In this document: positions 18,710 through 33,218 of the stretch, in pieces | Layout of the letters: each line of letters opens with the position of its first letter | Position numbering within the stretch: the first letter of the stretch is position 1 | Source of the DNA: a virus | DNA: 64,000 bases | IMG/VR virus record: IMGVR_UViG_3300025438_000010 | Location: 1 to 64,000 of that record | Reading direction: 5' to 3' (one strand) | Translations under genes and position numbers: made by a program | Notes under the pieces: model-generated | The model's database searches: none | Seen by the model: the letters and a program-made list of their open reading frames with translations, nothing else | What the model was told of the DNA's origin: nothing

Positions 18710-18724
18710 GCCTCAAGCGGAAAG

Positions 18725-18788: not shown

Positions 18789-18822
18789 AAAAACATAACG
18801 ACGGAGCTACGAAAGGAGAATC

Positions 18823-19539: not shown

Positions 19540-19544
19540 CGGAG

Positions 19545-19602: not shown

Positions 19603-19633
19603 AAAGATAGCAACGACGAAAAGGAGCAAGACA

Positions 19634-19855: not shown

Positions 19856-19856
19856 T

Positions 19857-19912
19857 CCGTAAAAAATTGGGGAGCCTCTCGCTATAATAAAAACAGATAG
19901 CGAGGGGCTTCC
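19857..19912 (+). promoter_or_regulatory. Array unit P6: promoter inside a hairpin
   Basis: CCGTAAAA at 19857 and TATAAT at 19883-19888. Arms 19871-19884 and 19898-19912 pair around the -10 box, so a read-through transcript would fold over it. No T run follows. Confidence 0.75.
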
Positions 19913-19941
19913 CTCAAAAAAAACGACAAAAGGAGAATGAC

Positions 19942-20586: not shown

Positions 20587-20643
20587 GATACTGGAGGGGG
20601 CGAGTAACGGCTCGCCCTCTCTAGTCCTAGAAAAGGAAGAAAA

Positions 20644-20919
20644 ATGGAAGAAGAAACAGAAACTATCGGCGAGGTCGAAAGAACTCTTCACTACTTCGCT
20701 GATGACGGTAACTATGGGTCTGCGGACGGACTTACGATCATGGAGTCTACCCATTGGGACGAAATTGATTGGTCAATTATTGAGGGAGCACCCGAGCACT
20801 TCCGCCCAATGGTTGCCCGGTTGATTACAGAAAGCTATGAACCGGACGCTAATGAACAAGCCCTACGCGCTGAGTTTGCTAAGTACGGGGTTGACATTAG
20901 TGACTATGAGAAAGACTAG
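20644..20919 (+). CDS. Array gene 8: acidic phage protein, 91 aa
   Basis: Strongly acidic, with a WDEIDWSIIEG segment and a helical C-terminus. Not recognised. AAAAGGAAG lies upstream. It probably depends on P6 read-through past the 20592-20620 hairpin. Confidence 0.75.
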   Translation: MEEETETIGEVERTLHYFADDGNYGSADGLTIMESTHWDEIDWSIIEGAPEHFRPMVARLITESYEPDANEQALRAEFAKYGVDISDYEKD

Positions 20920-20966
20920 TAAGTAACTGGGGGGAATTGACTTGGGGGTTTCCCGTCGTTTCCTCC

Positions 20967-21041
20967 ACGGTGTTGGTGGTCACCGTTATCAAAATCACTA
21001 TTTTAGTTTCCGTAAAAAATGTCTGAGGTGGGAGATACAAT
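20967..21041 (+). promoter_or_regulatory. Array unit P7: hairpin plus promoter
   Basis: ACGGTG/CACCGT stem (20967-20986), CCGTAAAA at 21010, TACAAT at 21036-21041. The leader folds as CACAGCAAC/GTTGTTGTG at the predicted 5' end. Confidence 0.75.
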
Positions 21042-21102
21042 AAAGACAACACAGCAACAAGCCCGTTGTTGTGAAAAAATGACGGAGTGAAAGGAGATAG
21101 CA

Positions 21103-21453
21103 ATGGCTATCGTCAGAAAGCGCAAGGTAAGCAAGGTTACGATTGTCGAGGACACCAAGACGGTCACCAAGACCGCCGTGGAACTTACGGACAGCGAGCA
21201 GGAAATCCTGGAGTCGTTTCTGAAGGCACGAACTGAAGAAACCGAAGCCAAGAAGGAGAAGGAACGCCTCTCCGCCCTGGTGAAGGACATTATCGGTGAC
21301 GCTCAGGTCGCTCTGGTGAACGGCGAAGTCCGAGTGGAGTTGCTCCGCTACCCACGAGTGACAATCGACTCGAAGTTGTTGTTCGAGAGTTTCACCGAAG
21401 CCTACGAAGCCACGGCACGCCAGTCCGTGGTCACCCGTATCCAAGCCAAGTAA
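21103..21453 (+). CDS. Array gene 9: coiled-coil basic phage protein, 116 aa
   Basis: A charged helix (DSEQEILESFLKARTEETEA, then KKEKERLSALVKDI) between a basic beta-like start and a beta-rich end with LLRYPRVTID. I have seen this arrangement in actinophage hypotheticals; function unknown. Confidence 0.75.
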   Translation: MAIVRKRKVSKVTIVEDTKTVTKTAVELTDSEQEILESFLKARTEETEAKKEKERLSALVKDIIGDAQVALVNGEVRVELLRYPRVTIDSKLLFESFTEAYEATARQSVVTRIQAK

Positions 21454-21509
21454 CACACGGGTCGGCTCCCCTCCGGGGGAGTCGGCTCACCCTAACGAAA
21501 GGAAACAAA

Positions 21510-21791
21510 ATGGGAAACATGACGGCACGAGAATTAGCGTTTCTAGGTAATGAAGGATTAGGACTAGACACCGCTATCTCATTCCACCTTACGAGCAATC
21601 ACTTTCCGCCGGTACCGACGATTATGGTCGGCGCGTGTGTCGAAGCGATAGACAACGCTAATGAAGGCGAGTGGGACAAGTTAGTCCAACTACCAGAAGG
21701 TGTGGGGTACCGGGGAAGGACTGTCGCACCGACAAAAGCGATCATTGAGCAACACCACCTTGACTCATTCCTAGACGACACCGAGGACTGA
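21510..21791 (+). CDS. Array gene 10: conserved phage protein, 93 aa
   Basis: Contains ISFHLTSNHFPPVP (about 23-36) and LPEGVGYRGRTVAP, segments that I recognise from small conserved actinophage proteins without known function. GAAAGGAAAC precedes the ATG. Second cistron after a GCTCCCC/GGGGAGT hairpin. Confidence 0.75.
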   Translation: MGNMTARELAFLGNEGLGLDTAISFHLTSNHFPPVPTIMVGACVEAIDNANEGEWDKLVQLPEGVGYRGRTVAPTKAIIEQHHLDSFLDDTED

Positions 21792-21800
21792 GCGACAAGG

Positions 21801-21864
21801 AAGCCCCTGAGAAATCAGGGGTTTCTTTGGTTCCGTAAAAAACTGAAGCGCACGGTTATACAAT
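21801..21864 (+). promoter_or_regulatory. Array unit P8: terminator plus promoter
   Basis: AAGCCCCTGA/TCAGGGGTTT hairpin with TTTCTTT (21801-21828), CCGTAAAA at 21833, TACAAT at 21859-21864. Leader stem CAGGG/CCCTG. Confidence 0.85.
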
Positions 21865-21903
21865 AGAAGCATACAGGGACAAGCCCTGGAAAAGGAGAAC
21901 GAC

Positions 21904-22245
21904 ATGAGTGATGTAGTAATTATCAAAACTGACGGTACTGTCGAAGCCCACAAGTTGTCCGGGGATTCAACCGCCGACTTCAACCTCATCAGAAACGCCG
22001 TCGAGGGCTTTGTGGAGCGAGTTCCTATCTCTGACTACACCCAACTGATGTGGGTGAACGAGGAGGGCAAGTTGCGTGGACTCCCCCACAACCCGAAGGC
22101 TCAGACCCTCTGGGACTCACAATGGGGAGCCGGAACTGACCGGATTGTGGGAAATGTGGTCATCACGGGTGACGACACCGAAGAAGGCGAAACAGGCACT
22201 CTCCCCGAAGGAGAAGCCGAACGGCTAGTGGCGCTACTGTCCTAG
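21904..22245 (+). CDS. Array gene 11: DUF3846-like protein
   Basis: 113 residues with MWVNEEGKLRGLPHNPKAQTLW in the middle and IVGNVVITGDD near the end, the layout of DUF3846, a small phage/plasmid family of unknown role. Acidic C-terminal tail. Confidence 0.75.
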   Translation: MSDVVIIKTDGTVEAHKLSGDSTADFNLIRNAVEGFVERVPISDYTQLMWVNEEGKLRGLPHNPKAQTLWDSQWGAGTDRIVGNVVITGDDTEEGETGTLPEGEAERLVALLS

Positions 22246-22256
22246 CCGACACGGAG

Positions 22257-22319
22257 AAGCCCCTGCTACGGCAGGGGTTTCTTTGTTCCGTAAAAAATGT
22301 AAAGGCGTGGCTATATAAT
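22257..22319 (+). promoter_or_regulatory. Array unit P9: terminator plus promoter
   Basis: AAGCCCCTGC/GCAGGGGTTT with TTTCTTT, CCGTAAAA at 22288, TATAAT at 22314-22319. Leader stem ACTAGCCC/GGGTTAGT. Confidence 0.85.
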
Positions 22320-22378
22320 AAAACTACTAGCCCAAACGGGTTAGTAAGACGGGAAACATAAAACGAAAGGGGCCAGAA

Positions 22379-22819
22379 ATGGCTAGAAGTATCGCAGTCC
22401 GTATCAAGACGGAGAAGGTTATAGCCTCGCTAGAAGCCTCACTTGAGAAGATGCAGCACGACAAGGAGAACGAGAAGCCACTCAGGGAGAAGTACGACAA
22501 GGAGTTGGAGGCTTGGACTCAGAAGGTCAAGAAGTACGCTCTCACCATGCCCAAGCCTAAGGACATGGACATGGTCGCGGTTGGGGGAGGCTACTACCAC
22601 CGTATTGCCTCGGACAACCCTGAGGATATTGCTGTTCAAATAGTCCTTGCGGTTCCGGCTAATAAGGTTCCAGAACGCCCCGAGGCTCCTGACGCTGTTG
22701 CGGCTTGGCAGTACCGTGATGCGGTGGAGAACATTGAGAACGCGCTCCGGTTGCTCCGTATGACCGACCAAGAAGAAATCAGCACGGGTACTTACAGCAA
22801 AATTGCTCAGTACCTCTAA
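22379..22819 (+). CDS. Array gene 12: helical phage protein, 146 aa
   Basis: Basic helical N-terminal half with coiled-coil character (KVIASLEASLEKMQHDKENE), a GGGYYHRIASD centre and a helical end. No motif recognised. GAAAGGGG Shine-Dalgarno. Confidence 0.75.
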   Translation: MARSIAVRIKTEKVIASLEASLEKMQHDKENEKPLREKYDKELEAWTQKVKKYALTMPKPKDMDMVAVGGGYYHRIASDNPEDIAVQIVLAVPANKVPERPEAPDAVAAWQYRDAVENIENALRLLRMTDQEEISTGTYSKIAQYL

Positions 22820-22828
22820 CGGCTGGAC

Positions 22829-22887
22829 AGCCCCTCACTACGGTGGGGGTTGTTCCCGTAAAAAATATCGGGCACGGTCTATACAAT
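22829..22887 (+). promoter_or_regulatory. Array unit P10: terminator plus promoter
   Basis: AGCCCCTCAC/GTGGGGGTT hairpin, CCGTAAAA at 22856, TACAAT at 22882-22887. Confidence 0.85.
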
Positions 22888-22942
22888 AAAGACATACCGA
22901 CACCGAGTAAAAGGCTGGGTGCGGTCTACTGAGGAGGTAGTA

Positions 22943-23272
22943 ATGATTATCGAGAGTGCGGTCAGGGATAGTTCCCTGGAGTTGTACCTGGACAATGCTC
23001 ACGGCATTGCCTTTGACACCTGCCACAAGATTTATGTCTTGATGGACAGCGAGCAGATGGGTCTGATGCGGGAGTATGAGTATGACCCTTTGATTTCTTC
23101 AGACGAGATGACACCTGCCGAGATGTACGAAACGGTGGCTGGCTGGTACGAGGAGTCTTGCCAACTGCGGTTTATCCAAGCCGTCACCACAGCCCCAGAT
23201 AACCCCAACGAGGGCTATGTAGATATAGTTCCCCAGTTCCTACTGTTCAACGAGGACGAGGACGAGGACTGA
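22943..23272 (+). CDS. Array gene 13: acidic phage protein, 109 aa
   Basis: Starts MIIESAVRDSS after GAGGAGG. Acidic throughout, with EYEYDPLISSDEM and a DEDEDED end. Not recognised. Confidence 0.75.
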   Translation: MIIESAVRDSSLELYLDNAHGIAFDTCHKIYVLMDSEQMGLMREYEYDPLISSDEMTPAEMYETVAGWYEESCQLRFIQAVTTAPDNPNEGYVDIVPQFLLFNEDEDED

Positions 23273-23280
23273 TAAGGAGA

Positions 23281-23337
23281 GTGCCCCTCTACGGAGGGGT
23301 ACTTTCCGTAAAAAGTGGCGTGGTGCGCCGATACAAT
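23281..23337 (+). promoter_or_regulatory. Array unit P11: terminator plus promoter
   Basis: GTGCCCCTC/GAGGGGTAC hairpin, CCGTAAAA at 23306, TACAAT at 23332-23337. Confidence 0.8.
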
Positions 23338-23366
23338 AAAGACACGGACAGCAAAGGAGGACAATT

Positions 23367-23549
23367 ATGTCTGAAAAAGTGACGGTGGCACACCTGCCTA
23401 CCTGTAACTTCTGTACCAACCTGGCAGGATATGACGCTAGGACGGTGTTAGGCGCGTGGGCTTACCTATGCGAGGAACATTTCTACCCCATGACCGAGGG
23501 ACGGCTTGGGACTGGCTACGGTCAGAAACTAATCCTGGAGGAGGCATGA
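23367..23549 (+). CDS. Array gene 14: zinc-binding protein, 60 aa
   Basis: CNFC at about residue 13 and CEEH at about 35 form a probable zinc site, followed by GRLGTGYGQKL, an arrangement seen in small actinophage proteins. Function unknown. Its stop overlaps the next start (ATGA). Confidence 0.75.
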   Translation: MSEKVTVAHLPTCNFCTNLAGYDARTVLGAWAYLCEEHFYPMTEGRLGTGYGQKLILEEA

Positions 23550-23692
23550 TGGCAATAGTAGTTAGGCGCTACGGCGTTACACCAACACGCGCCGGTCTGG
23601 TATCGACCTGCGTGGAGTGTGGGAGAGTATTCGACCTCACCGATGAAACTGACGCTAACGAGTTAGCCTACGGACACGACTGCGAGGTGTGA
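23546..23692 (+). CDS. Array gene 15: zinc-ribbon protein, 48 aa
   Basis: CVECGRVFDLTDETDANE then HDC makes a C-x2-C...H-x-C site; the GRVFDLTDETDA stretch is familiar from actinophage micro-proteins. Either of two adjacent ATGs (23546, 23549) follows GGAGGAGG; the first overlaps the upstream stop. Confidence 0.75.
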   Translation: MMAIVVRRYGVTPTRAGLVSTCVECGRVFDLTDETDANELAYGHDCEV

Positions 23693-23700
23693 GTGACACG

Positions 23701-23768
23701 GCACGCCCCCTCTCCGGAGGGGGTGCTGTCGTTGTCCCGTAAAAAATTGGGAGTAGTGGGAATAAAAT
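23701..23768 (+). promoter_or_regulatory. Array unit P12: terminator plus promoter
   Basis: GCACGCCCCCTC/GAGGGGGTGC hairpin (23701-23726), CCGTAAAA at 23737, and a weaker -10 (TAAAAT, 23763-23768). Short leader without a clear 5' stem. Confidence 0.75.
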
Positions 23769-23790
23769 AAAGGTATCAACGGGAGGAGGA

Positions 23791-23967
23791 ATGATGATAT
23801 GTCAATACTGTAATGAGAACCCTGTCCGGGAAGGCTGGGCTATCACCTGCGCCGTGTGTACTTTCATGTGTACACGGTGCAAGGAGGACACACCCTACGA
23901 ATTAGGAGTGTCCTGGGATAGGTACTGTGACCCCTGCGGTGTTGCGGTGGCTTCTGTCCCATTCTAA
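23791..23967 (+). CDS. Array gene 16: four-CxxC zinc protein, 58 aa
   Basis: Four C-x2-C pairs (CQYC, CAVC, CTRC, CDPC) in 58 residues, enough for two zinc ions in a double ribbon. GGGAGGAGGA precedes two possible ATGs. A protein of this kind could bind RNA polymerase or nucleic acid; this is inference. Confidence 0.75.
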   Translation: MMICQYCNENPVREGWAITCAVCTFMCTRCKEDTPYELGVSWDRYCDPCGVAVASVPF

Positions 23968-23970
23968 GCG

Positions 23971-24033
23971 ACTCCCCCTCTCCGGAGGGGGTTTCGCCGT
24001 TCCGTAAAAAACATGGAGGGGGGCTTATACAAT
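23971..24033 (+). promoter_or_regulatory. Array unit P13: terminator plus promoter
   Basis: CCCCCTCTCCGGAGGGGG hairpin with TTTCG, CCGTAAAA at 24002, TACAAT at 24028-24033. Confidence 0.85.
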
Positions 24034-24086
24034 AAAGACATGACGGGGGGACACTAGGGCTTTCCGCATAACCTGAGGAGGACACC

Positions 24087-24425
24087 ATGGGTGACCGTTC
24101 GAATATCGCGATTGTCTACCACACCGGAGAAACTATCTACCTGTACGGGCATTGGCTCGGGCATGAAAGTCAGAGGATTGTCGCACGCGCAATTTCTGAG
24201 GGCAGGCGAATGGAAGACGAGTCTTATTTCGCTCGGATTCTTTTTAGCAAAATGATTGCTGAGGACATTGCCGGCGAAACCGGCTTCGGTATCGCACCGT
24301 ATGAGGTAGACCAGGACTACGGCAATCCCACAGTTACCGTGGATTTTCGTGACCACACGGTGATGCACGACAACTGGGATAACGCTGTCCCGTTCGCTGA
24401 CTACCCCCGGCTAGTACTGGTATAG
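24087..24425 (+). CDS. Array gene 17: conserved MGDRSNI phage protein, 112 aa
   Basis: Begins MGDRSNIAIVYHTGETIYLY, then GHWLG, a start shared by many actinophage hypotheticals. Mixed alpha/beta, acidic. Function not known. GAGGAGG Shine-Dalgarno. Confidence 0.8.
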   Translation: MGDRSNIAIVYHTGETIYLYGHWLGHESQRIVARAISEGRRMEDESYFARILFSKMIAEDIAGETGFGIAPYEVDQDYGNPTVTVDFRDHTVMHDNWDNAVPFADYPRLVLV

Positions 24426-24434
24426 CCTGACGGG

Positions 24435-24498
24435 AGCCCCTCACTTCGGTGAGGGGCTACCCCGTTCCGTAAAAAATTGGCTACGGCATGGATACAAT
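24435..24498 (+). promoter_or_regulatory. Array unit P14: terminator plus promoter
   Basis: AGCCCCTCAC-TTCG-GTGAGGGGCT hairpin, CCGTAAAA at 24467, TACAAT at 24493-24498. Leader stem AGGGG/CCCCT. Confidence 0.85.
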
Positions 24499-24539
24499 AA
24501 AGACAACAGCAGGGGAAATACCCCTACGGGAGGAGAGTC

Positions 24540-24875
24540 ATGGATACGGCTACGGTAGTAGGATTGGTGGCTACTACACCACGATATGTAGAAACTATTG
24601 ACGGGAAGCGTGTTTTATCTTTTCGTCTGGCGTGCCCTCAGAAGGGTTACGACAGGGACACCGGCGAGTGGGTGCCTAAAGACACAAACTGGTACACGGT
24701 GCTGTGCTTTGACGATGTAGCAAGCGACTGTGTCGACAGGGTTGGCAAGGGGAGTCGGATTGTTGTAGTTGGTAATCTGATGAAAGTCACAGATTGGTCT
24801 GCTGACAGCCCCTCGGGTACTTCGGTAGAAATACACGCCCACACCCTGGGTAACCTGGGGAAGAACATATCCTAA
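24540..24875 (+). CDS. ssb: Array gene 18: single-stranded DNA-binding protein
   Basis: 111 residues with the OB-fold order of bacterial SSB: VVGLVATTPRY, VLSFRLACPQ, NWYTVLCFDDVA, GSRIVVVGNLMK and a closing strand (VEIHAHTLG). It stops after the OB domain and lacks the acidic C-terminal tail that recruits partners, so it may act alone or as a competitor. It would coat single-stranded phage DNA early in replication. Confidence 0.85.
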   Translation: MDTATVVGLVATTPRYVETIDGKRVLSFRLACPQKGYDRDTGEWVPKDTNWYTVLCFDDVASDCVDRVGKGSRIVVVGNLMKVTDWSADSPSGTSVEIHAHTLGNLGKNIS

Positions 24876-24876
24876 C

Positions 24877-24942
24877 GGTAACCCCCTCTCCGGAGGGGGA
24901 TTACCCGTCTCCGTAAAAAATCACACGGTGCTTCGGTACAAT
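24877..24942 (+). promoter_or_regulatory. Array unit P15: terminator plus promoter
   Basis: GGTAACCCCCTC/GAGGGGGATTACC hairpin (24877-24905), CCGTAAAA at 24911, TACAAT at 24937-24942. Very short leader with no 5' stem. Confidence 0.85.
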
Positions 24943-24967
24943 AAAGATATGGAAAGGAGGTCAGCAA

Positions 24968-25171
24968 ATGTCTGACATAAAATACCCTGAGGTGGAAGTA
25001 GAACTGGTAGGACAGGACGGCAACGCGTTCGCTGTTATGGCAAGAGTGAGCAAGGCTCTCCGCCGGGCTAGTGTGGCTCAGCAGGAGATTGACGAGTACC
25101 TCAAGGAATCTACCTCTGGGGACTACGACCACCTAGTGGCAACCGCCACCCGGTGGGTTACGGTTCACTAA
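24968..25171 (+). CDS. Array gene 19: conserved actinophage protein, 67 aa
   Basis: Starts MSDIKYPEVEVELVGQDGNA; the following helix (KALRRASVAQQEIDEYLK) and TATRWVTV end are shared with many small actinophage proteins of unknown function. GGAAAGGAGG Shine-Dalgarno. Confidence 0.8.
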   Translation: MSDIKYPEVEVELVGQDGNAFAVMARVSKALRRASVAQQEIDEYLKESTSGDYDHLVATATRWVTVH

Positions 25172-25184
25172 CCCCACACGGCAC

Positions 25185-25245
25185 TAGCCCCTCTTCGGAG
25201 GGGTTATTGTCGTCCGTAAAAAATGCGGTGAGGACACCATACAAT
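25185..25245 (+). promoter_or_regulatory. Array unit P16: terminator plus promoter
   Basis: AGCCCCTC-TTCG-GAGGGGTT hairpin, CCGTAAAA at 25214, TACAAT at 25240-25245. Confidence 0.85.
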
Positions 25246-25299
25246 AAAGACATAGACAAGGAGGCACTAGAACTCTTTGCTATAACCTGAGGAGGAACT

Positions 25300-25521
25300 A
25301 TGTACGAGGTCGAGACCAGAATGGTCATAACCACACCACGGTGTCCCGAGTGCGGAGAGGCTGGCATTCTCCAAATCCCGGCAGACGGCTACGACCGCTG
25401 GGCAGAGGGTGCGCTTATTCAAGAAGCCTTTCCCAACCTTTCCCTAGCCCTTAGGGAACAACTGAAGACCGGCTATCACGGCGCTTGCTGGGATACGGCT
25501 TTTGGACCCGTCCCTTTTTAG
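25300..25521 (+). CDS. Array gene 20: zinc-ribbon protein, 73 aa
   Basis: CPECGEAG at about residue 15, then GYDRWAEGALIQEAFPNL and GYHGACWDTAFG. One CxxC plus a late Cys/His pair. The pattern is common in actinophages; function unknown. Confidence 0.8.
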   Translation: MYEVETRMVITTPRCPECGEAGILQIPADGYDRWAEGALIQEAFPNLSLALREQLKTGYHGACWDTAFGPVPF

Positions 25522-25532
25522 CCCCACACGGC

Positions 25533-25596
25533 AATTCCCCGGCTTAGGCTGGGGTTTTGTCGTCCCGTAAAAAATGAGGGAACACGGGAATATAAT
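25533..25596 (+). promoter_or_regulatory. Array unit P17: terminator plus promoter
   Basis: CCCCGGC-TTAG-GCTGGGG with TTTTGT, CCGTAAAA at 25565, TATAAT at 25591-25596. Leader stem GACAC...GTGTC with an inner AAGC/GCTT. Confidence 0.85.
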
Positions 25597-25650
25597 AAAG
25601 ACATAGACACCAAGCAAAAGGCTTAGTGTCACTACCCTGGAGGAGTACCT

Positions 25651-25926
25651 ATGAGTACACGGGCAAAGGTAAGGGCAAAAGTCCTTGCAGATGGTGGGAC
25701 CTTTGAGGAGGGCTACACCGGCTGGGCAAGCGACACCTACTGGGTCGAGGTAACACTCTCCGATTCAGAAACGGTGTGGGCTTGTGAGGCGACAGAGTAC
25801 GACAGCCTCTGGACCCTGAGGGTCGAGCAAGAGGATAGCGAAACTCGCGCTCAGATGTGGAGCTATGTCTGGGACAAGGTACGCTTTCCCGTAGTTCGCC
25901 GTGATAGCTTCTCACAAGCTGTCTAA
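25651..25926 (+). CDS. Array gene 21: phage protein, 91 aa
   Basis: Basic start (STRAKVRAKVLADGG), then a Trp-rich beta region and a helical end. Not recognised. GGAGGAG Shine-Dalgarno. Confidence 0.75.
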   Translation: MSTRAKVRAKVLADGGTFEEGYTGWASDTYWVEVTLSDSETVWACEATEYDSLWTLRVEQEDSETRAQMWSYVWDKVRFPVVRRDSFSQAV

Positions 25927-25931
25927 CCCCC

Positions 25932-25999
25932 AAGCCCCTGTCAGAAATGGCAGGGGTTCCTGGGGTGCCGTAAAAAAATTCTATCGAAGGTCGTACAAT
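25932..25999 (+). promoter_or_regulatory. Array unit P18: terminator plus promoter
   Basis: AAGCCCCTGTCA/TGGCAGGGGTT hairpin, CCGTAAAA at 25968, TACAAT at 25994-25999. Confidence 0.85.
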
Positions 26000-26051
26000 A
26001 AAGACAACGGCACACGGGGTACGCCTGTGAGCCACTACCTGAGGAGGCACT

Positions 26052-26165
26052 ATGAGTGACAACCCTTTCGACAACCTGGACATTATCAACCAGGACGCGA
26101 TTGACGCGATGGATGACGAAACCGTCAAGACGGTTTGGGAAATCCTTACCAAAGCCGGCTACTAG
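26052..26165 (+). CDS. Array gene 22: acidic micro-protein, 37 aa
   Basis: MSDNPFDNLDIINQD followed by a short helix ending KAGY; almost no basic residues. GAGGAGG precedes the ATG. Acidic micro-proteins of this size are typical host-takeover products, but no target can be named. Confidence 0.75.
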   Translation: MSDNPFDNLDIINQDAIDAMDDETVKTVWEILTKAGY

Positions 26166-26222
26166 GCGAGAGAGGGCGGGGAAACCCGCTCTCTCCCCCT
26201 ACCCCAACAGAAAGAGGAAAGA

Positions 26223-26450
26223 ATGTTAGAAAGAATTACACGGGTAAATTACTACTGGAAAGACACGGTAATCCCTGGAGATACTGACGCACAAGTAGTT
26301 ATCCTGAACGATAGCGACAAGTACGAACAAATGTCTAATGATGGAAGTTTCGATGAGCGTATCTGGTTCTACTTTCAGAATGAAGATGAGTTCCAACGAG
26401 CCTTTGACCCCGCTAACACGGAGTTCGAGTTCGTCCTCACCGGAGGATAG
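26223..26450 (+). CDS. Array gene 23: acidic phage protein, 75 aa
   Basis: Beta-rich and acidic (VNYYWKDTVIPGDTDAQVV). Second cistron of P18 after a GAGAG...CTCTC hairpin without a T run. Not recognised. Confidence 0.75.
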   Translation: MLERITRVNYYWKDTVIPGDTDAQVVILNDSDKYEQMSNDGSFDERIWFYFQNEDEFQRAFDPANTEFEFVLTGG

Positions 26451-26474
26451 GTTTTCCTCCCAGGGAAAAAGCAC

Positions 26475-26539
26475 AAGCCCCGCCATTTCTGGCGGGGTTT
26501 TGTGTGTCCGTAAAAAGTTAGGGGACACGGGGATACAAT
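26475..26539 (+). promoter_or_regulatory. Array unit P19: terminator plus promoter
   Basis: AAGCCCCGCCA/TGGCGGGGTTTTG hairpin, CCGTAAAA at 26508, TACAAT at 26534-26539. Leader stem GCACGGAACA/TGTTCTGTGT. Confidence 0.85.
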
Positions 26540-26591
26540 AAAAACATCAGCACGGAACAAGCGGTGTTCTGTGTCTAACCCTGGAGGAACT

Positions 26592-26747
26592 ATGTATTAC
26601 TTTGTTACGGTTATAGAAAAAGCCTCACGAGAGATTGTGGCGACTTATCTTGACGCCTTTGAGTCTGACGCTCACGAGAGGGCTCAGACCATTGGAACCA
26701 TTGAAGGCTACGCGGTGTTCATTACTAGTGGTGACCCACTCTCATAG
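26592..26747 (+). CDS. Array gene 24: small phage protein, 51 aa
   Basis: MYYFVTVIEKASREI then a helix and a short beta end; possibly a small ferredoxin-like fold. GGAGG Shine-Dalgarno. Not recognised. Confidence 0.75.
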   Translation: MYYFVTVIEKASREIVATYLDAFESDAHERAQTIGTIEGYAVFITSGDPLS

Positions 26748-26757
26748 CAACTAGGGG

Positions 26758-26819
26758 AGCCCCAGCTTAGGCTGGGGTTTCTGCTGTCCGTAAAATTCGA
26801 TCGACACGGACGATACAAT
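26758..26819 (+). promoter_or_regulatory. Array unit P20: terminator plus promoter (TCGATCGA type)
   Basis: AGCCCCAGC/GCTGGGGTTT hairpin, CCGTAAAA at 26788, TTCGATCGA in the spacer, TACAAT at 26814-26819. Leader stem GACAG/CTGTC. Confidence 0.85.
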
Positions 26820-26873
26820 AAAAGCACAGACAGGGACACAAGGTTTCTGTCCTAACCCTGGAGGATAGCAATT

Positions 26874-27062
26874 ATGCGTTCACACGATGGATTGGCAGAA
26901 TGGGCTTTGGAACAAGCCACCACACGGGAGCAAATTGCTCACCACATCGAGCGTTTGCGCGATGATGCCCTGATGATTCACGACTACCCCGAGCAGGCTA
27001 TCGCCTTTATCGAGGACGAACTCCGTGAGATTCGGGTGCTACTGGCTAGGGATTCAGACTAG
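26874..27062 (+). CDS. Array gene 25: helical protein, 62 aa
   Basis: Three predicted charged helices (AEWALEQATTREQIAHHIERLRDD). No known family. GGAGG Shine-Dalgarno. Confidence 0.75.
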   Translation: MRSHDGLAEWALEQATTREQIAHHIERLRDDALMIHDYPEQAIAFIEDELREIRVLLARDSD

Positions 27063-27071
27063 CCAGACACG

Positions 27072-27132
27072 GAACCCCTCTCCGGAGGGGTTTCGGTCGT
27101 CCGTAAAAATCGATCGAAGGACGGAATACAAT
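27072..27132 (+). promoter_or_regulatory. Array unit P21: terminator plus promoter (TCGATCGA type)
   Basis: AACCCCTC-TCCG-GAGGGGTTT hairpin, CCGTAAAA at 27101, TCGATCGA in the spacer, TACAAT at 27127-27132. Leader stem CAGCA...TGCTG. Confidence 0.85.
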
Positions 27133-27179
27133 AAAAACATCAGCACGGAAATACCGGGCGATTGCTGGGAGGAGTGGCT

Positions 27180-27386
27180 ATGCCCACTTTGGTTGTCACG
27201 GACACCAACAAGATTGGTGTCGATGGTTTGGTGGAAAGGCTTGCCGACCACATCATTATGGTAGTCGATAGGCGCGGGTATGGTGAGCAGGACAATGTCC
27301 ACACCATCACGCTTGCCGACACCATTCGCAACACGGAGGCGCACGGGCTTGCCTGTCGCCTAGGGTTTCTCGCCCACATCGAGTAG
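27180..27386 (+). CDS. Array gene 26: phage protein, 68 aa
   Basis: From the ATG after GGGAGGAG: MPTLVVTDTNKIGVDGLVER, alternating strands and helices. Not recognised. Confidence 0.75.
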   Translation: MPTLVVTDTNKIGVDGLVERLADHIIMVVDRRGYGEQDNVHTITLADTIRNTEAHGLACRLGFLAHIE

Positions 27387-27396
27387 CCCTGCCCAT

Positions 27397-27467
27397 ACTG
27401 TCCCCTCTCCGGAGGGGATAGTGTGCGTTTGCTGTCCGTAAAATTCGATCGAAGCACGGAATATAAT
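27397..27467 (+). promoter_or_regulatory. Array unit P22: terminator plus promoter (TCGATCGA type)
   Basis: ACTGTCCCCTC/GAGGGGATAGT hairpin, CCGTAAAA at 27436, TTCGATCGA in the spacer, TATAAT at 27462-27467. Confidence 0.85.
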
Positions 27468-27516
27468 AAAGACACAAGCACACGGGAACCCCTGTGGCTT
27501 ACCTGAGGAGGAACTA

Positions 27517-27600
27517 ATGAGTGAAAATATGTGTTCAGGCTGTGGCGATATCTGCCGGGCAAGTGAATCAAAGTGCGGTATCTGTAGAGGGGGGTGGTGA
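27517..27600 (+). CDS. Array gene 27: zinc-ribbon micro-protein, 27 aa
   Basis: CSGCGDIC and CGIC supply five Cys in 27 residues. GAGGAGG precedes the ATG. First of three closely spaced cistrons from P22. Confidence 0.7.
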   Translation: MSENMCSGCGDICRASESKCGICRGGW

Positions 27601-27603
27601 GAG

Positions 27604-27780
27604 ATGGGCATCACGGAAATGTTCCAACTGATTCGCCAAGTCTGGTCAGACTCTATGTCAGACAATGGCGCTATCTGGGAACGCTCTAACGCGGAACTAC
27701 AGAATGCTAAGGCTAACTACCCCGACCTGTACGAAGAAGCCCTGGCTATGGCATACGAGGCGAGTGTGAATCAACGATGA
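27604..27780 (+). CDS. Array gene 28: helical protein, 58 aa
   Basis: A single-domain helical protein (MFQLIRQVWSDSM, then NAELQNAKANYP). Starts 3 nt after the previous stop and overlaps the next start (ATGA). Confidence 0.7.
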   Translation: MGITEMFQLIRQVWSDSMSDNGAIWERSNAELQNAKANYPDLYEEALAMAYEASVNQR

Positions 27781-27980
27781 GCCAGACACCAGACACGGCT
27801 TATGGGGTAACGCTCAGTTTCACATTCCACGAGCCACGGAACAAGACACGGGAAGAAGCCGAGCGCTTTATCAACGAGTATGTGAGCAGACTCGCCGAGA
27901 ATGACGAGAGTGACCTACCCGAAGTCCGATGGGACGATGTGGAGTGGAACATCGTGGAACTACTGCCAGAAGCACAGTAA
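27777..27980 (+). CDS. Array gene 29: acidic phage protein, 67 aa
   Basis: Starts in the ATGA overlap. Beta strand YGVTLSFTFHEP, one helix, then an acidic beta end (VRWDDVEWNIVELL). Not recognised. Confidence 0.75.
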   Translation: MSQTPDTAYGVTLSFTFHEPRNKTREEAERFINEYVSRLAENDESDLPEVRWDDVEWNIVELLPEAQ

Positions 27981-27989
27981 GCCACAAGC

Positions 27990-28054
27990 AAGCCCCTGGC
28001 GAGAGCCGGGGGTTTTGCTGTCCCGTAAAATTCGATCGAAGCACGGAATATAAT
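27990..28054 (+). promoter_or_regulatory. Array unit P23: terminator plus promoter (TCGATCGA type)
   Basis: AAGCCCCTGGC/GCCGGGGGTTTTG hairpin, CCGTAAAA at 28023, TTCGATCGA in the spacer, TATAAT at 28049-28054. Leader stem AGCAC...GTGCT. Confidence 0.85.
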
Positions 28055-28109
28055 AAAGACATAGCACAAGGGCACAAGGTCCTAGTGCTCTAACCCTGAG
28101 GAGAAAGAA

Positions 28110-28430
28110 ATGCTGAAAGAGAAACTGACCACACTGCCGGAGTTGTACAGCACGGACGAGACGAAGGGCGACCTGCCTGCTGTTTATGTGTTCACACCAG
28201 ACGCTGGAGCGACCTGGGTGCTTTGGGAGTACAGCCCCGAAGAAGGACTGGCGTTCGGGCTGTGCGACCTGGGCTTGGGCTTTCCCGAGATGGGATATGT
28301 CTCAGTCCCCGAGTTGGAATCACTACGCGGTAAGTTTGGCTTGCCTGTCGAGGTAGACACCAGCGTCACCACACGGTTCCAGGGCTACGAGAAGGCTGGA
28401 GTGTCGACCCCTGAGTACCTGATGGCTTGA
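28110..28430 (+). CDS. Array gene 30: DUF2958-like protein
   Basis: 106 residues. TWVLWEYSPEEGLAFGLCDLG and MGYVSVPELESLRGKFGLPVEVD follow the pattern of DUF2958, a family common on plasmids and phages, of unknown function. Complete length. Confidence 0.75.
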   Translation: MLKEKLTTLPELYSTDETKGDLPAVYVFTPDAGATWVLWEYSPEEGLAFGLCDLGLGFPEMGYVSVPELESLRGKFGLPVEVDTSVTTRFQGYEKAGVSTPEYLMA

Positions 28431-28440
28431 GAGCCGTACC

Positions 28441-28510
28441 CCCCAGCCCCCACTCCGGTGAGGGTTGGGGCAGTGTGCTCGTAAAATTCGATCGAAGCAC
28501 GGGTTATACT
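28441..28510 (+). promoter_or_regulatory. Array unit P24: hairpin plus promoter (TCGATCGA type)
   Basis: CCCCAGCCCCCAC/GTGAGGGTTGGGG hairpin. The element here is TCGTAAAA (28479), the only copy without CCG, and the -10 is TATACT (28505-28510). Confidence 0.75.
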
Positions 28511-28539
28511 AAAAACATCACAAGGGAAAGGAGACAATA

Positions 28540-28692
28540 ATGTCTTACACTTACAAAATAGTGTTTGTGATAATCACCCTGGGAGTGGTACTCTCTTTCC
28601 ACGACACCTACTGGCCTTGGGCTATGGTTCCTCTGGTGCTTTCGGCACTGGTTGGCGCTATTGGGCTCAGGCTCGGGGGTCGAGGAAAATAA
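28540..28692 (+). CDS. Array gene 31: two-helix membrane protein, 50 aa
   Basis: Two hydrophobic helices (about 6-20 and 26-43) joined by a short HDTYWPW turn, with a basic GGRGK end. GAAAGGAG Shine-Dalgarno. A host-membrane function is likely, but none can be named. Confidence 0.75.
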   Translation: MSYTYKIVFVIITLGVVLSFHDTYWPWAMVPLVLSALVGAIGLRLGGRGK

Positions 28693-28716
28693 GTTTTCCT
28701 CCCAGGGGAAAAGGCA

Positions 28717-28780
28717 GACCCCCTACTTCGGTAGGGGGTTCTGTCATTCCGTAAAAAAGACATAGCACGGAGAATATAAT
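28717..28780 (+). promoter_or_regulatory. Array unit P25: terminator plus promoter
   Basis: GACCCCCTAC-TTCG-GTAGGGGGTTC hairpin, CCGTAAAA at 28749, TATAAT at 28775-28780. Confidence 0.85.
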
Positions 28781-28834
28781 AAAGACATAGACAGGGAGAC
28801 AAAAGGGCTTTCTGCTATAACCTGGGAGGTCATT

Positions 28835-29044
28835 ATGGCTAAGCAGTTTCGAGTCCTCGCAAGCAAGTCGGGCTTCAAGACGTTCGACTTCACTTATGAC
28901 GCACACGAGGAGTCATACGCTCGCAAGGTCGCTAACACACTGAGCGATGAAAATTGGTCAGTGTGGTTTGAGACCCTCGATGACAAGCACCAGAGTGCGG
29001 TCATCAACGACCTAGACTTTGTCTTCGGCAAGACACAGTTCTAA
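28835..29044 (+). CDS. Array gene 32: phage protein, 69 aa
   Basis: FRVLASKSGFKTFDFTYDAHEE then a helix and FVFGKTQF; mixed alpha/beta. Not recognised. GGGAGG Shine-Dalgarno. Confidence 0.75.
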   Translation: MAKQFRVLASKSGFKTFDFTYDAHEESYARKVANTLSDENWSVWFETLDDKHQSAVINDLDFVFGKTQF

Positions 29045-29055
29045 GGCGCACGGCA

Positions 29056-29121
29056 GACCCCTGGCTTCGGCTAGGGGTTTTGTCGTTCCCCGTAAAATTC
29101 GATCAACACGACTTGTAGAAT
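29056..29121 (+). promoter_or_regulatory. Array unit P26: terminator plus promoter
   Basis: GACCCCTGGC-TTCG-GCTAGGGGTTTTG hairpin, CCGTAAAA at 29090, variant spacer TTCGATCAA, -10 TAGAAT (29116-29121). Its leader has the clearest 5' stem: GATATC...GATATC with CAGAGAG/CTTTCTG inside. Confidence 0.85.
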
Positions 29122-29177
29122 AGAGATATCACAGAGAGACACTAGGGCTTTCTGGATATCTGGGAAGGAAACAAATT

Positions 29178-29369
29178 ATGTATCAGGTAAAAATCTTTAC
29201 ACACAGAGATGCCTCGCTCTTCGCCGAGTCTGAGACGTTCCAGACTAGGGAGGAAGCCGATGCCTACGCCACGTCTGTTGGCACGGGAGAGGGCTACTGG
29301 ACCGAGATTCACCACTCGCAGGCGGTGTGGAGCAACTTCACATCACACGAGAGGCTTGCCCACCAGTAA
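29178..29369 (+). CDS. Array gene 33: small phage protein, 63 aa
   Basis: MYQVKIFTHRDASLF, then REEADAYATSVG and a Trp-containing end; probably a small alpha/beta fold. Similar in style to arrays 24 and 34. Not recognised. Confidence 0.75.
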   Translation: MYQVKIFTHRDASLFAESETFQTREEADAYATSVGTGEGYWTEIHHSQAVWSNFTSHERLAHQ

Positions 29370-29382
29370 GCCCTCACCCCAG

Positions 29383-29443
29383 GACCCCACTTCGGTGGGG
29401 CTTCTGGCATTCCGTAAAATTCGATCGACCCTAGGAATACAAT
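29383..29443 (+). promoter_or_regulatory. Array unit P27: terminator plus promoter (TCGATCGA type)
   Basis: GACCCCAC-TTCG-GTGGGGCTTCT hairpin, CCGTAAAA at 29412, TTCGATCGA, TACAAT at 29438-29443. Leader stem AGACAgCAGGG/CCCTGtGTCT. Confidence 0.85.
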
Positions 29444-29492
29444 AAAGACATAGACAGCAGGGAAATGCCCTGTGTCTACCTGGGAGGCACTA

Positions 29493-29714
29493 ATGGCTCA
29501 CAACTACAAGGTCAATGGCTGGTTCGGTTCTACCACGGCAGGGTGGCGTATCGCCCTGGAGCCTGCTTTCTTCGAGGACATCGAGGAGGCACGGCTCTAT
29601 GCCCAGGGACTCCACCTAGCCAATCAGGAGGCTAACACGGAAGCCTACGAGGTCGAGGTCTTCAGACTTCGGGAGCGAGGTCTTGCTCTCCGAGTCCTGG
29701 AGTACAGCGCCTAG
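29493..29714 (+). CDS. Array gene 34: phage protein, 73 aa
   Basis: Starts MAHNYKVNGWFGSTT after GGGAGG. Contains DIEEARLYAQGLHLANQEAN (helix) and a beta/basic end. Last protein-coding unit of the array. Not recognised. Confidence 0.75.
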   Translation: MAHNYKVNGWFGSTTAGWRIALEPAFFEDIEEARLYAQGLHLANQEANTEAYEVEVFRLRERGLALRVLEYSA

Positions 29715-29726
29715 GACTACCCCAGG

Positions 29727-29793
29727 GACCCCACTTCGGTGGGGTTTCTGGAGTTCTTGCGCCGTAAAAATCCCGGAGTGAGATTGGTACAAT
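29727..29793 (+). promoter_or_regulatory. Array unit P28: terminator plus promoter
   Basis: GACCCCAC-TTCG-GTGGGGTTTCT hairpin (29727-29749), CCGTAAAA at 29762, TACAAT at 29788-29793. No gene follows before the next terminator. Confidence 0.85.
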
Positions 29794-29798
29794 GGAAC

Positions 29799-29890
29799 CA
29801 CACCACAAGGGAGCACAGGGCTCCTCGCGGAGCTCTCCACGAGAGCAAGCTCTAGCTCATCACCAGGACCCCACTTCGGTGGGGTTTCTG
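29799..29890 (+). ncRNA. Candidate small RNA from the ORF-less last array unit
   Basis: Promoter P28 is followed by about 70 nt with no start codon or Shine-Dalgarno and then by a terminator nearly identical to two others (GACCCCAC-TTCG-GTGGGGTTTCT, 29867-29889). The transcript contains GCTCC-TCGC-GGAGC and GCTCT-CCACG-AGAGC hairpins and an AGCTCTAGCT palindrome. This is what a phage-encoded regulatory RNA would look like; a remnant of a deleted gene is the alternative. Confidence 0.55.
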
Positions 29891-29964
29891 GCGTTTATAG
29901 GTTTTTACGATAAAGGTGTGTAGGGTAGTGGCAACTAACTAATATTTATTTCTAGGGGGGAATA

Positions 29965-30423
29965 GTGGCTAATCCAGATACGGACTTACAAGGGGTAGGG
30001 GTCTACTTAGAACAAAGATCCCCTAACAGACTGACCGGAGCTACTCACCAGCTGTTTATTTTTCCGGAGGGCTATACGCCTACACTTCAAAGGATTGTCC
30101 CTAAGGTTTTCCATAGGCATCTCAACAGGTACGCCCCACGGAAGAACTGGATCTGTGCGCCATTACACCTTAACGAGGTTGACTTTTCTGATGAGGAAAC
30201 TGTGGCTGAGTTACTACTACCTCCGCTGGCTCGAGCTGTATGGGGAGAGTACACACTGGTTGGGAAGCCACTACTCTTCGAGGTATCAAAGAAGGACATG
30301 TTCGAGGTTGCTAGGAGAAAACTACCTACGCGGATTAATTTAAAGATAAAGACAATGCGGAGTGCTCACGGCTACCCAGAATCTGTAGTCGAGATCGAGA
30401 AGAAGGAGGAAGCAGATGGTTGA
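29965..30423 (+). CDS. Phage protein before the MoxR ATPase, 152 aa
   Basis: GTG start with a G-rich AGGGGGG upstream. Basic, with a central ENWICAPLHL-like beta part and a helical acidic middle (EETVAELLLPPLARAVW). It overlaps the ATPase gene by 8 nt, so it is probably part of the same complex or pathway. Not recognised. Confidence 0.75.
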   Translation: MANPDTDLQGVGVYLEQRSPNRLTGATHQLFIFPEGYTPTLQRIVPKVFHRHLNRYAPRKNWICAPLHLNEVDFSDEETVAELLLPPLARAVWGEYTLVGKPLLFEVSKKDMFEVARRKLPTRINLKIKTMRSAHGYPESVVEIEKKEEADG

Positions 30424-31468
30424 TGTAGCACGGGATGGTGTAGGTAGGTTCCAGGGCCCGGTAAAAGGCTCAAGGGCAGTTACTGAGCTCGAATCATGGG
30501 ACATCTTGGTTGATATCCTTAAACAGAGCTCAGACGAGGCTGTGGCCAAGAGATTACTTGGTGAGGTCCCTGGAGATGGAAGATACATCCCACGGAAGCC
30601 TAAAGGCTCCGGGATGTCACAAAAGGAAAAGAAGTTAATGAATATTGATGCTCTAGAAGGCCACACCAGCTACGAGAGGCCAAATGGGGATCTCTACTAC
30701 AGCAGACCCTGGGGAGCTCACGCGGATGTCGAGGTCCTGAGGAAAGCCAGGGAAGCCACGGCTTCTGGCTCTGGCTCGTCGCTGTTTGCCTTGCTCTATG
30801 GATCACCAGGGTGTGGCAAGACTGCACTGGTCGAAGCGGCGTTCCCGGATGTTTATACGTTGATGGGAACTGGCGACACTGAGGTTGCTGACCTGGTTGG
30901 TGGTTACATCCAGAATGACGATGGTGGCTTCGAGTGGGTTGATGGTGATCTGTTGAAGGCTGCAGAAAATGGAGCTGTCTACTTCATCGACGAGATTGGG
31001 TTGATTGACCCCAAGGTTCTTTCAGTCGTGTACGGGCTGATGGATGGGCGGCGAGAGCTTTCTGTTACTGCCAACCCCCAACGCGGAACCATTAAAGCTC
31101 ATCCCAACTTTTATGTGGTGGCTGCAACAAACCCCAATGCTCCTGGCGTGCGGCTTTCAGAGGCGCTGCTGTCACGCTTCACGATGCAGGCAGAGATGAC
31201 CACGGACTGGGGACTGGCCAAGAAGTTAGGTGCCTCGGTCCGAATCGTCACTGCCGCCCAGAACCTGGCTAAGAAGCAGAGCTCGCGTGAGGTGTCTTGG
31301 GCACCTCAGATGCGAGAGCTCCTGGCGTTCAGGGATGTGTCAGAGCTTTATGGAACTGATTTTGCGATCTCTAATCTCCTGGCTTTGGCTCCAGAGATGG
31401 ATCGTCCAATGGTTGCAGATGTGTTGACCAGGGTCTATGCTGAGGACCACCGACCAGCGAGGATTTAA
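30416..31468 (+). CDS. MoxR-type AAA+ ATPase
   Basis: 350 residues. After about 110 basic/helical residues the AAA+ core shows Walker A GSPGCGKT (about 130), Walker B VYFIDEIG (about 192), sensor 1 ATNPN and an arginine-containing LLSRF. The inserts and LMDGRRELSV loop match the MoxR branch, which works with VWA-domain partners to insert metals or remodel complexes. The VWA partner is the next gene, 1 nt away. AAGGAGG Shine-Dalgarno. Confidence 0.88.
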   Translation: MVDVARDGVGRFQGPVKGSRAVTELESWDILVDILKQSSDEAVAKRLLGEVPGDGRYIPRKPKGSGMSQKEKKLMNIDALEGHTSYERPNGDLYYSRPWGAHADVEVLRKAREATASGSGSSLFALLYGSPGCGKTALVEAAFPDVYTLMGTGDTEVADLVGGYIQNDDGGFEWVDGDLLKAAENGAVYFIDEIGLIDPKVLSVVYGLMDGRRELSVTANPQRGTIKAHPNFYVVAATNPNAPGVRLSEALLSRFTMQAEMTTDWGLAKKLGASVRIVTAAQNLAKKQSSREVSWAPQMRELLAFRDVSELYGTDFAISNLLALAPEMDRPMVADVLTRVYAEDHRPARI

Positions 31469-31469
31469 G

Positions 31470-33218
31470 ATGGAGCATTTGAGGCACAGTGATCCAGAAG
31501 GGGAGAGCCCTCCGCCCCCGATCGAGTGGCTGAAGGTCGGGACCACTGTTGCTGACCTGACCAATCAGCTCTCTGCCCGGAATGACATCATCGCCCTCGT
31601 CGGGCCTGATGCGGCACATGGTGCGCCAGCCTGCTTCTTCCCCCACCACTCTGAGGTTGAGCTCAACACCAACACAGCTTTTGGGCCCAGAACAGCCCCA
31701 GAGGATGTCGGGGACCTCACTGATCCCAAGAGGCAGTACGAGTTTCCTCGTGCAGTTGGTCTGATTGCCCACGAAGCCTTCCATGCTCGATACAGCAGGT
31801 GGAGTGCGTCTGAAACAGCAGATCAGCTCAATGCGGAGGAGTTCAAGGCCTTCGAGCTGCTGGAGGAGTCACGAATTGAGTATCAGGGGCTTCAGGATGT
31901 CCCACGGGTTCGTGAGTTCATTAGATCGGCTGTGATTGACATTAATCTTGAGCACCGCCCCGAGATGGAGCACACAGAGGCCGCTTTCCAGGTTTTTGGT
32001 TTAATCAATGCACGCGTTCAGGCTGGCACGCTCGAGGAGCGAGAGGTCGAGGATGTTGTGGGCCAAGTCACTGACTTTTTAGGCGCAGAGCTTTCCCTGC
32101 ACTTGTCTGGAATTGTCTCGACGTTCCATGAGTCCAGAGATCTTTCGGAGAGGCACCAGCTGGCTCGTGAGTGGGTCGCTGCAAAGCATGAGGCGGCTGA
32201 TCAGAGAGGGGAGAAGCCTGATGGTGGTTTTGACCCCGCAGCCCTGGCTCAGGCCGTAAAAAATGCGCTAGAAGATATTATCCTTACAGCTAGCATTGCT
32301 TTAGCTGACCAAGAGTCAGACGAGGTAGCCGAAGCTTTCGTGCTTGATGTCCAACAAAAGACAAAGCAGCGTAAGCGCAACGAGCAGGAGGCAGAGAAGC
32401 TGTTCAGCAAAGCTTCGGAGCTTAGCTCAAGCTTCACTCGGTCACACATGAAGCAGATGCGGGATCCAACCCCCGAGGAGCGTGCGGCTGCAGTTATCGT
32501 CGCCACCGAGCTGGAGAAGGCAAAGTACCACGACCGCATTGAGATTGAGACAGACAACTATCTTCCTCCTGGTCGACTTCGCACACGAGCACTTGTCCAA
32601 GCACGGGCAGCTGAGAGCAAGGGCCTCAGGCTGGCAAGCACACCCTGGCGTAGGACCAAGCGCAAGCACACTATCGACCCTTCTCTCACAGTGGGGGTGA
32701 TGGTGGACATCTCTGGCTCTATGTCGAGCGCCATGGAGCCTATGGCAGTGACAGCCTGGGTCATGAGCGAGGCAGTTCGTAGGATTCAGGGGCGAGCGGC
32801 TATGATCTACTATGGCGACTCAGTGTTCCCCACACTCAGCCCTGGGCAGCACCTAGAGAAGGTCTACATCTACGGAGCCTATGATGGCAGCGAGGAGTTT
32901 GACAAGGCTTTTCGTGGGCTAGATGGGGCCCTTGGACTTCTTGAGGGCTCGGGTGCTAGACTGTTAGTGATATCGTCTGATGGACACTATCGGTCTGATC
33001 AGATTGAGCAGGCACGACATTGGATCACAGAGTGCGCCAAAGCCGGGGTTGCGATTCTTTGGTTGCCCTACGACACAGGGCGTAGTCTCAGCAGGCTCCT
33101 GGGCCCTGGTGTGCCCCAACATCATATTTCGGTGGTCACAGGAACTATGTCTCCAGCAGGCGTAGCCACACGCATTGGCCGAGCTGCAGCCGCAGCCCTG
33201 GCTCAGGCAAGTCAATAG
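31470..33218 (+). CDS. Zincin-like plus VWA-domain protein (MoxR partner)
   Basis: 582 residues from the ATG after GAGGAT; an ATG at 31437 in frame lies inside the ATPase gene. Residues 98-107 (IAHEAFHARY) hold an HExxH zinc motif, with LLEESRIE about 35 residues later as the likely third ligand, as in DUF2201-type metallopeptidase-like domains. A helical middle follows, then a VWA domain with a MIDAS DISGSMS at about 412 and a later SSDGHY. Such pairs act as chaperones or processing machines; the substrate is unknown. Confidence 0.8.
   Translation: MEHLRHSDPEGESPPPPIEWLKVGTTVADLTNQLSARNDIIALVGPDAAHGAPACFFPHHSEVELNTNTAFGPRTAPEDVGDLTDPKRQYEFPRAVGLIAHEAFHARYSRWSASETADQLNAEEFKAFELLEESRIEYQGLQDVPRVREFIRSAVIDINLEHRPEMEHTEAAFQVFGLINARVQAGTLEEREVEDVVGQVTDFLGAELSLHLSGIVSTFHESRDLSERHQLAREWVAAKHEAADQRGEKPDGGFDPAALAQAVKNALEDIILTASIALADQESDEVAEAFVLDVQQKTKQRKRNEQEAEKLFSKASELSSSFTRSHMKQMRDPTPEERAAAVIVATELEKAKYHDRIEIETDNYLPPGRLRTRALVQARAAESKGLRLASTPWRRTKRKHTIDPSLTVGVMVDISGSMSSAMEPMAVTAWVMSEAVRRIQGRAAMIYYGDSVFPTLSPGQHLEKVYIYGAYDGSEEFDKAFRGLDGALGLLEGSGARLLVISSDGHYRSDQIEQARHWITECAKAGVAILWLPYDTGRSLSRLLGPGVPQHHISVVTGTMSPAGVATRIGRAAAAALAQASQ

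What the first reader, a model, noticed from the sequence alone, without database searches (positions are those of the whole stretch)
29762..29890. ORF-less final array unit: candidate phage small RNA
A complete promoter of the array type is followed by about 70 nt of highly structured sequence with no Shine-Dalgarno or start codon, and then by a terminator almost identical to those of two neighbours. All other array promoters drive genes.
Basis: partly seen in the sequence, partly recalled or inferred. Interest (0 to 1): 0.7.

Follow-up and report, generated by a model that had tools for sequence, protein, structure and literature searches.

The report
ORF-less phage array unit, possible sRNA
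At the end of a row of 27 one-gene switches in an uncultured actinobacterial phage sits a 28th switch that has a promoter and a stop signal but no gene, so it probably makes a roughly 90-letter RNA that is either a small regulator or the remains of a lost gene.

Summary
Unit 28 (29762-29891) keeps the array promoter core: CCGTAAAAA, exactly 18 nt, then TACAAT. Its matrix score is 18.1, against 34-55 for the other 27 units and 5.8 for the best non-array site. About 65 nt follow with no TG dinucleotide, hence no start codon, and then a 29-nt hairpin terminator nearly identical to those of units 26 and 27. All 27 other units drive ORFs. Three refinements matter. The promoter is the most divergent of the 28 and has lost the AAAGACA that follows the -10 box elsewhere. 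The fold is modest (body z -2.6; with terminator -3.6), and array mRNA leaders fold about as well. The 'terminator' lacks a U-run. No relative carries this element: promoter, terminator and body patterns are absent from IMG/VR (one chance promoter site), and 40 MoxR-bearing records, 28 MCP-bearing records and INPHARED gave no match. Near-identical population contigs do not reach the array, so conservation cannot be tested. No attenuator-type alternative fold exists, and the downstream operon has its own candidate control motif. No pairing target beats shuffled controls. A short non-coding transcript is likely. A functional sRNA (about 0.45) and a unit that lost its ORF (about 0.3) are not separable here.

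The parts
29762..29793 (+). array-type promoter core CCGTAAAA-N18-TACAAT (upstream element 29762-29770, -10 box 29788-29793)
29799..29891 (+). inferred ~85-95 nt non-coding transcript (start inferred from -10 spacing, end from 3' hairpin)
   Evidence: sequence and folds; no transcript data
29809..29825 (+). 5' hairpin GGGAGC-ACAGG-GCTCCT with 5-nt loop, at the place where about 18 of 27 array mRNAs carry a leader hairpin; forms in nascent RNA, later absorbed into a longer stem in the MFE fold
   Evidence: not recognised by the leader model R1
29832..29846 (+). second local hairpin GCTCTC-CAC-GAGAGC (alternative to the extended MFE stem)
29853..29855 (+). TAG about 8 nt before the 3' hairpin, the spacing that stop codons of units 26 and 27 have to theirs; possible trace of a lost ORF
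   Evidence: sequence; weak, could be chance
29863..29891 (+). 3' hairpin CCAGGACCCCAC-TTCG-GTGGGGTTTCTGG, inferred terminator, near-identical to those of units 26 (29379-29407) and 27 (29723-29751)
29903..29912 (+). TTTTACGATA, 3 exact copies in the record, all upstream of + strand ORFs (3241, 12545, 29965); candidate promoter/operator of the downstream operon, hence a boundary of unit 28
   Evidence: (0.06 expected)
29965..33218 (+). downstream operon: 152-aa conserved ORF, MoxR-type AAA ATPase (30416-31468), VWA-type protein (31437-33218)
   Evidence: domain names partly from general knowledge
17163..29755 (+). the 27 coding array units (promoter, mostly hairpin leader, SD, short ORF, 3' hairpin) of which 29762-29891 is the 28th

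Best explanation
Unit 28 is a complete but gene-less transcription unit of the phage's array. The array promoter is read together with the other 27, RNA polymerase stops at the 3' hairpin, and the product is a roughly 85-95 nt, highly base-paired, untranslated RNA. I think it most likely persists as a small RNA of the phage, expressed in step with the array genes, and acts by its structured stem region (base pairing, or binding a protein that also meets the array mRNAs' leader hairpins). Shown: promoter core, absence of any start codon, 3' hairpin, predicted fold. Inferred: transcription, termination, stability. Not shown at all: any target or function.
For: Promoter core with exact 18-nt spacing, far above every non-array site. 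No start codon in the 67 nt between predicted start and hairpin. Body folds better than shuffles (z -2.6 body, -3.6 with hairpin). 3' hairpin kept nearly identical to the neighbours'. The downstream operon appears to have its own upstream motif, and no alternative pairing of the terminator's 5' arm exists, so the unit looks self-contained. Abundant small non-coding transcripts from phage promoters are documented in actinobacterial phages L5, D29 and StarStuff (PMC5712189).
Against: No expression data and no relative with the element. The promoter is the weakest of the 28 and lacks the AAAGACA conserved in the others. Fold stability is ordinary for this array. Antisense and target searches do not beat shuffles (best target energy matched by 44 of 100 shuffles; 18-nt complementarity to unit 27 also seen in 8 of 60 shuffles). 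No U-run after the hairpin.
Confidence: 0.45

Rival explanations
1. Relic: a former array unit whose ORF (from the SD to the stop codon) was lost, for instance by recombination in this repeat-rich array, leaving promoter, leader and terminator. It may still be transcribed but does nothing.
For: The transcript is about a leader (46-50 nt) plus stop-to-terminator spacer plus terminator long. A 5' hairpin with 5-nt loop sits where array leaders have theirs. Best match of the body is in register with the leader of unit 23 (28060 vs 29799), p 0.002 with two scoring schemes. TAG 8 nt before the terminator, as in neighbours. Promoter is the most degraded of all.
Against: With a stricter gap penalty the leader match drops to p 0.097; neither a sequence profile nor the covariance model R1 of the leaders recognises unit 28, although the profile also misses about half of the true leaders in leave-one-out; no recognisable ORF fragment remains; the three core promoter elements and the terminator are intact.
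Confidence: 0.3
2. Regulated leader: 29762 is the promoter of the MoxR-VWA operon at 29965 and the hairpin is a promoter-proximal terminator (attenuator) in a 166-nt leader.
For: In relatives the orthologue of the 29965 gene has a promoter-like site close upstream, in several of them resembling that of neighbouring units (e.g. L039, L043). In this phage 29762 is the last array-class promoter before the operon.
Against: With the terminator forbidden its 5' arm pairs with nothing upstream (cost 19.4 kcal/mol), so there is no antiterminator. The hairpin is the same as those that end the neighbouring gene units. A separate motif (TTTTACGATA) shared with two other gene upstream regions lies between hairpin and gene, about 53 nt before the start codon.
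Confidence: 0.15
3. Boundary element: promoter and hairpin have no RNA function; the second terminator insulates the operon from array read-through.
For: Two near-identical terminators in tandem directly before a differently controlled operon.
Against: Insulation needs no promoter between the terminators, and the intact promoter would add transcription.
Confidence: 0.1

Closest known systems
Abundant small non-coding RNAs of Cluster A mycobacteriophages L5/D29/StarStuff (Pleft RNAs; D29 gp63-64 intergenic RNA)
   Same: Actinobacterial phage; ORF-less transcripts made from a phage promoter during lytic growth (PMC5712189)
   Different: Those are shown by RNA-seq and Northern and come from a ~500-nt region without canonical terminator; here one ~90-nt unit with hairpin terminator, prediction only, no sequence relation tested
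Terminated phage sRNAs such as lambda OOP RNA
   Same: Short promoter-hairpin-terminator RNA without ORF (review PMC12197685; anatomy of OOP from general knowledge)
   Different: OOP is antisense to cII; unit 28 is not antisense to any overlapping gene and no trans target was found
Neighbouring array units 26 and 27 of the same phage
   Same: Same promoter core and spacing, same 3' hairpin, same strand, similarly placed 5' hairpin
   Different: They carry SD, start codon and a 63- or 73-aa ORF; unit 28 has none and lacks the AAAGACA start region

Membership tests
array unit of this phage | CCGTAAAA-N18-TAnnnT promoter on + strand | tested here: met
array unit of this phage | AWARAC(A) directly after the -10 box | tested here: not met
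   GGAACCA at 29794-29800
array unit of this phage | SD and start codon with ORF | tested here: not met
   no TG dinucleotide in 29799-29865
array unit of this phage | GC-rich 3' hairpin | tested here: met
array unit of this phage | leader hairpin plus ACCTGGAGG-type leader sequence | tested here: inconclusive
   local hairpin at the right place and pairwise match to unit 23, but profile and covariance model do not recognise it
bacterial/phage small regulatory RNA | dedicated promoter and terminator around a non-coding body | tested here: met
   by sequence only:
bacterial/phage small regulatory RNA | detected transcript of defined size | not testable with these tools
   no RNA data
bacterial/phage small regulatory RNA | conserved structure in relatives | tested here: inconclusive
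   no relative with the element in IMG/VR, INPHARED or 68 related records; near-identical contigs do not reach the site
bacterial/phage small regulatory RNA | target complementarity above chance | tested here: not met
   phage 5' regions and array transcripts only; host mRNAs not testable (host unknown)
known Rfam RNA families | score above gathering threshold | tested here: not met
transcription attenuator | alternative antiterminator pairing | tested here: not met

The most novel reading that the evidence does not exclude
The array has evolved an RNA-only cassette: an mRNA unit stripped to promoter, hairpin and terminator that works as a decoy or pairing RNA for the factor acting on the leader hairpins shared by about 18 of its 27 sister mRNAs, so that one small RNA tunes a whole array of phage genes.
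Probability: 0.08. Interest if true: 0.75.

Novelty: new member of a known kind. Interest (0 to 1): 0.35.

Why it matters
If transcribed and functional it would be a small RNA in a little-known actinobacterial phage group, with its origin readable from the array around it (a protein unit turned RNA unit). If a relic, it shows how these repeat-rich single-gene arrays lose genes. The array itself, with 28 identically spaced promoters of an unusual type and matching leader hairpins, is the more striking object.

Tried and rejected
Attenuator/riboswitch reading: judged unlikely, no antiterminator and no Rfam match. Hidden tiny ORF: none possible with ATG/GTG/TTG. Pairing with phage mRNA starts or array transcripts: not above shuffles. 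Origin as inverted copy of the unit 27 3' end (29673-29690 vs 29841-29858, 15 of 18 complementary): p 0.027 for the adjacent stretch but frequent in shuffles over the array, not pursued. Leader homology by profile and covariance model: not recognised. Relatives: MoxR, unit-27 protein and MCP scans, promoter, terminator and body patterns, phage BLAST, record-level searches: no unit-28-like element. The first promoter pattern scan used a wrong gap and is void. Weak Rfam matches with E 0.25 or worse are chance.

Full report
Setting. The window is bases 1-64000 of a 75,623-bp uncultured virus record. Relatives by the MoxR-type ATPase at 30416 are actinobacterial phages (Gordonia, Microbacterium, Brevibacterium phages, Actinomycetia phage DSL-LC01) and 58 IMG/VR loci, mostly 58-71% identical. 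By the major capsid protein at 60309, four other IMG/VR contigs are identical (L090-L093), but by their lengths and positions none reaches the finding, and a record-level search found nothing in them.

The array. From 17163 to 29793 there are 28 sites CCGTAAAA-N18-TAnnnT (one reads TCGTAAAA), all on the + strand and all with exactly 18 nt between the two elements; none is on the other strand, and in the whole record the only further match to the looser pattern is one at 32254 with a 17-nt gap and a poor -10. A stricter version has 17 matches in the window against none in 100 shuffles. Directly after the -10 box comes AAARAC(A) in nearly all units. Twenty-seven sites are followed by a Shine-Dalgarno sequence and a short ORF; the units I read in full end in a GC-rich hairpin. 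About 18 of the 27 leaders begin with a hairpin that usually has a loop of about 5 nt. The promoter pattern occurs once in IMG/VR (a single chance site), and in 84,980 prokaryote genomes only as single scattered sites, so no other array of this kind is in these collections.

The finding. Unit 28 keeps the upstream element, the exact spacing and TACAAT, but a matrix trained on the other 27 gives it 18.1 against 34.3-54.6 for them and 5.8 for the best unrelated site: it is genuine and it is the most divergent. The difference lies mainly after the -10 box, where AAAGACA is GGAACCA. From the predicted start (about 29799) to the hairpin (29863) there is no TG dinucleotide and therefore no ATG, GTG or TTG; about 7% of equally long array stretches lack a start codon. 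The 3' hairpin is nearly identical to those of units 26 and 27. It has a UUCG loop and no real U-run, so termination there is inferred from its place at the end of neighbouring units. The body folds at -22.4 kcal/mol (z -2.6), with the hairpin -38.6 (z -3.6); the first 32 nt of many coding leaders give z -2 to -5, so 'highly structured' is true but not special to this unit.

Is it a separate unit or the leader of the next operon? In relatives the orthologue of the 29965 gene has its own promoter-like site close upstream. Here the 29762 promoter is about 170 nt away with the hairpin in between. Forbidding the hairpin costs 19.4 kcal/mol and frees its 5' arm without any alternative partner, so a classical attenuator is not supported. 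Between hairpin and gene lies TTTTACGATA, present three times in the record, each time upstream of a + strand ORF (0.06 expected in the window). I read this as a separate control element of the operon; that is inference.

RNA gene or relic? For a relic: the transcript is about as long as a leader plus terminator; a 5-nt-loop hairpin sits at the leader position; the body's best partner is the leader of unit 23, in register from the start site, with p 0.002 under two scoring schemes but 0.097 under a stricter one; a TAG lies 8 nt before the hairpin as in the neighbours; and the promoter is degraded. Against it: sequence-profile and covariance-model searches do not recognise a leader, no ORF fragment is recognisable, and core promoter and terminator are intact. 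For an RNA gene: exactly these intact elements, the missing start codons and the fold. Against it: no relative, no target above chance, no Rfam family. The decisive evidence, variants of the same phage population over this site or RNA reads, is not available here.

Comparison. Small non-coding RNAs made from phage promoters are known in actinobacterial phages: L5, D29 and StarStuff make very abundant ones (PMC5712189), and phage sRNAs generally are reviewed in PMC12197685. A terminated ~90-nt ORF-less unit is anatomically of this known kind. I do not claim membership in any named RNA family.

Verdict. Observation confirmed; interpretation partly supported; a plausible but unproven phage small RNA, with a lost-gene relic as the serious rival.

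Noticed in passing
17163-29793: 28 promoters with an atypical upstream element CCGTAAAAA exactly 18 nt before TAYAAT and AAAGACA after it; not found as an array anywhere else in IMG/VR or GTDB. Which polymerase factor reads it is unknown.
   Followed up: partly
19894-29490 (leaders of units 6-27): About 18 of 27 array mRNAs begin with a stable hairpin, often with a 5-nt loop (ACAAG, AAATA and the like), just before the Shine-Dalgarno sequence; a shared post-transcriptional control is possible.
   Followed up: partly
3175, 12525, 29903: TTTTACGATA occurs exactly three times, each upstream of a + strand ORF; 0.06 expected.
   Followed up: partly
16972-17001 and about 36600-36640: CCGTAC-type inverted repeat CCGTACAAAGTTAATTTTAAACTTGTACGG before the ORF at 17015, and related CCGTACAA/CCGTACGA sites before 36666; look like operators.
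   Followed up: no
16799-16912: Non-coding, hairpin-rich stretch ending in a strong GGCCCCCCG...CGGGGGGTC terminator just before the array, after a 30-odd-codon cysteine-rich ORF; a second candidate RNA or a 3' UTR.
   Followed up: no
34889-35153 and 35494-35818: Near-identical duplicated minus-strand ORF (MFGITARDMNGTEYSFAIDTV...) about 605 bp apart.
   Followed up: no
41198-54781: One ORF of 4527 codons between the portal (38317) and head genes.
   Followed up: no
L002:8624-8700, L007:8419-8485: Similar non-coding sequence (CCTGAGCAAGT...CTGCTCA) after the orthologue of the 20644 gene in two relatives; possible conserved RNA element.
   Followed up: no
L090-L093: Four IMG/VR contigs encode an identical major capsid protein; probably the same phage population, but none covers the array.
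   Followed up: partly
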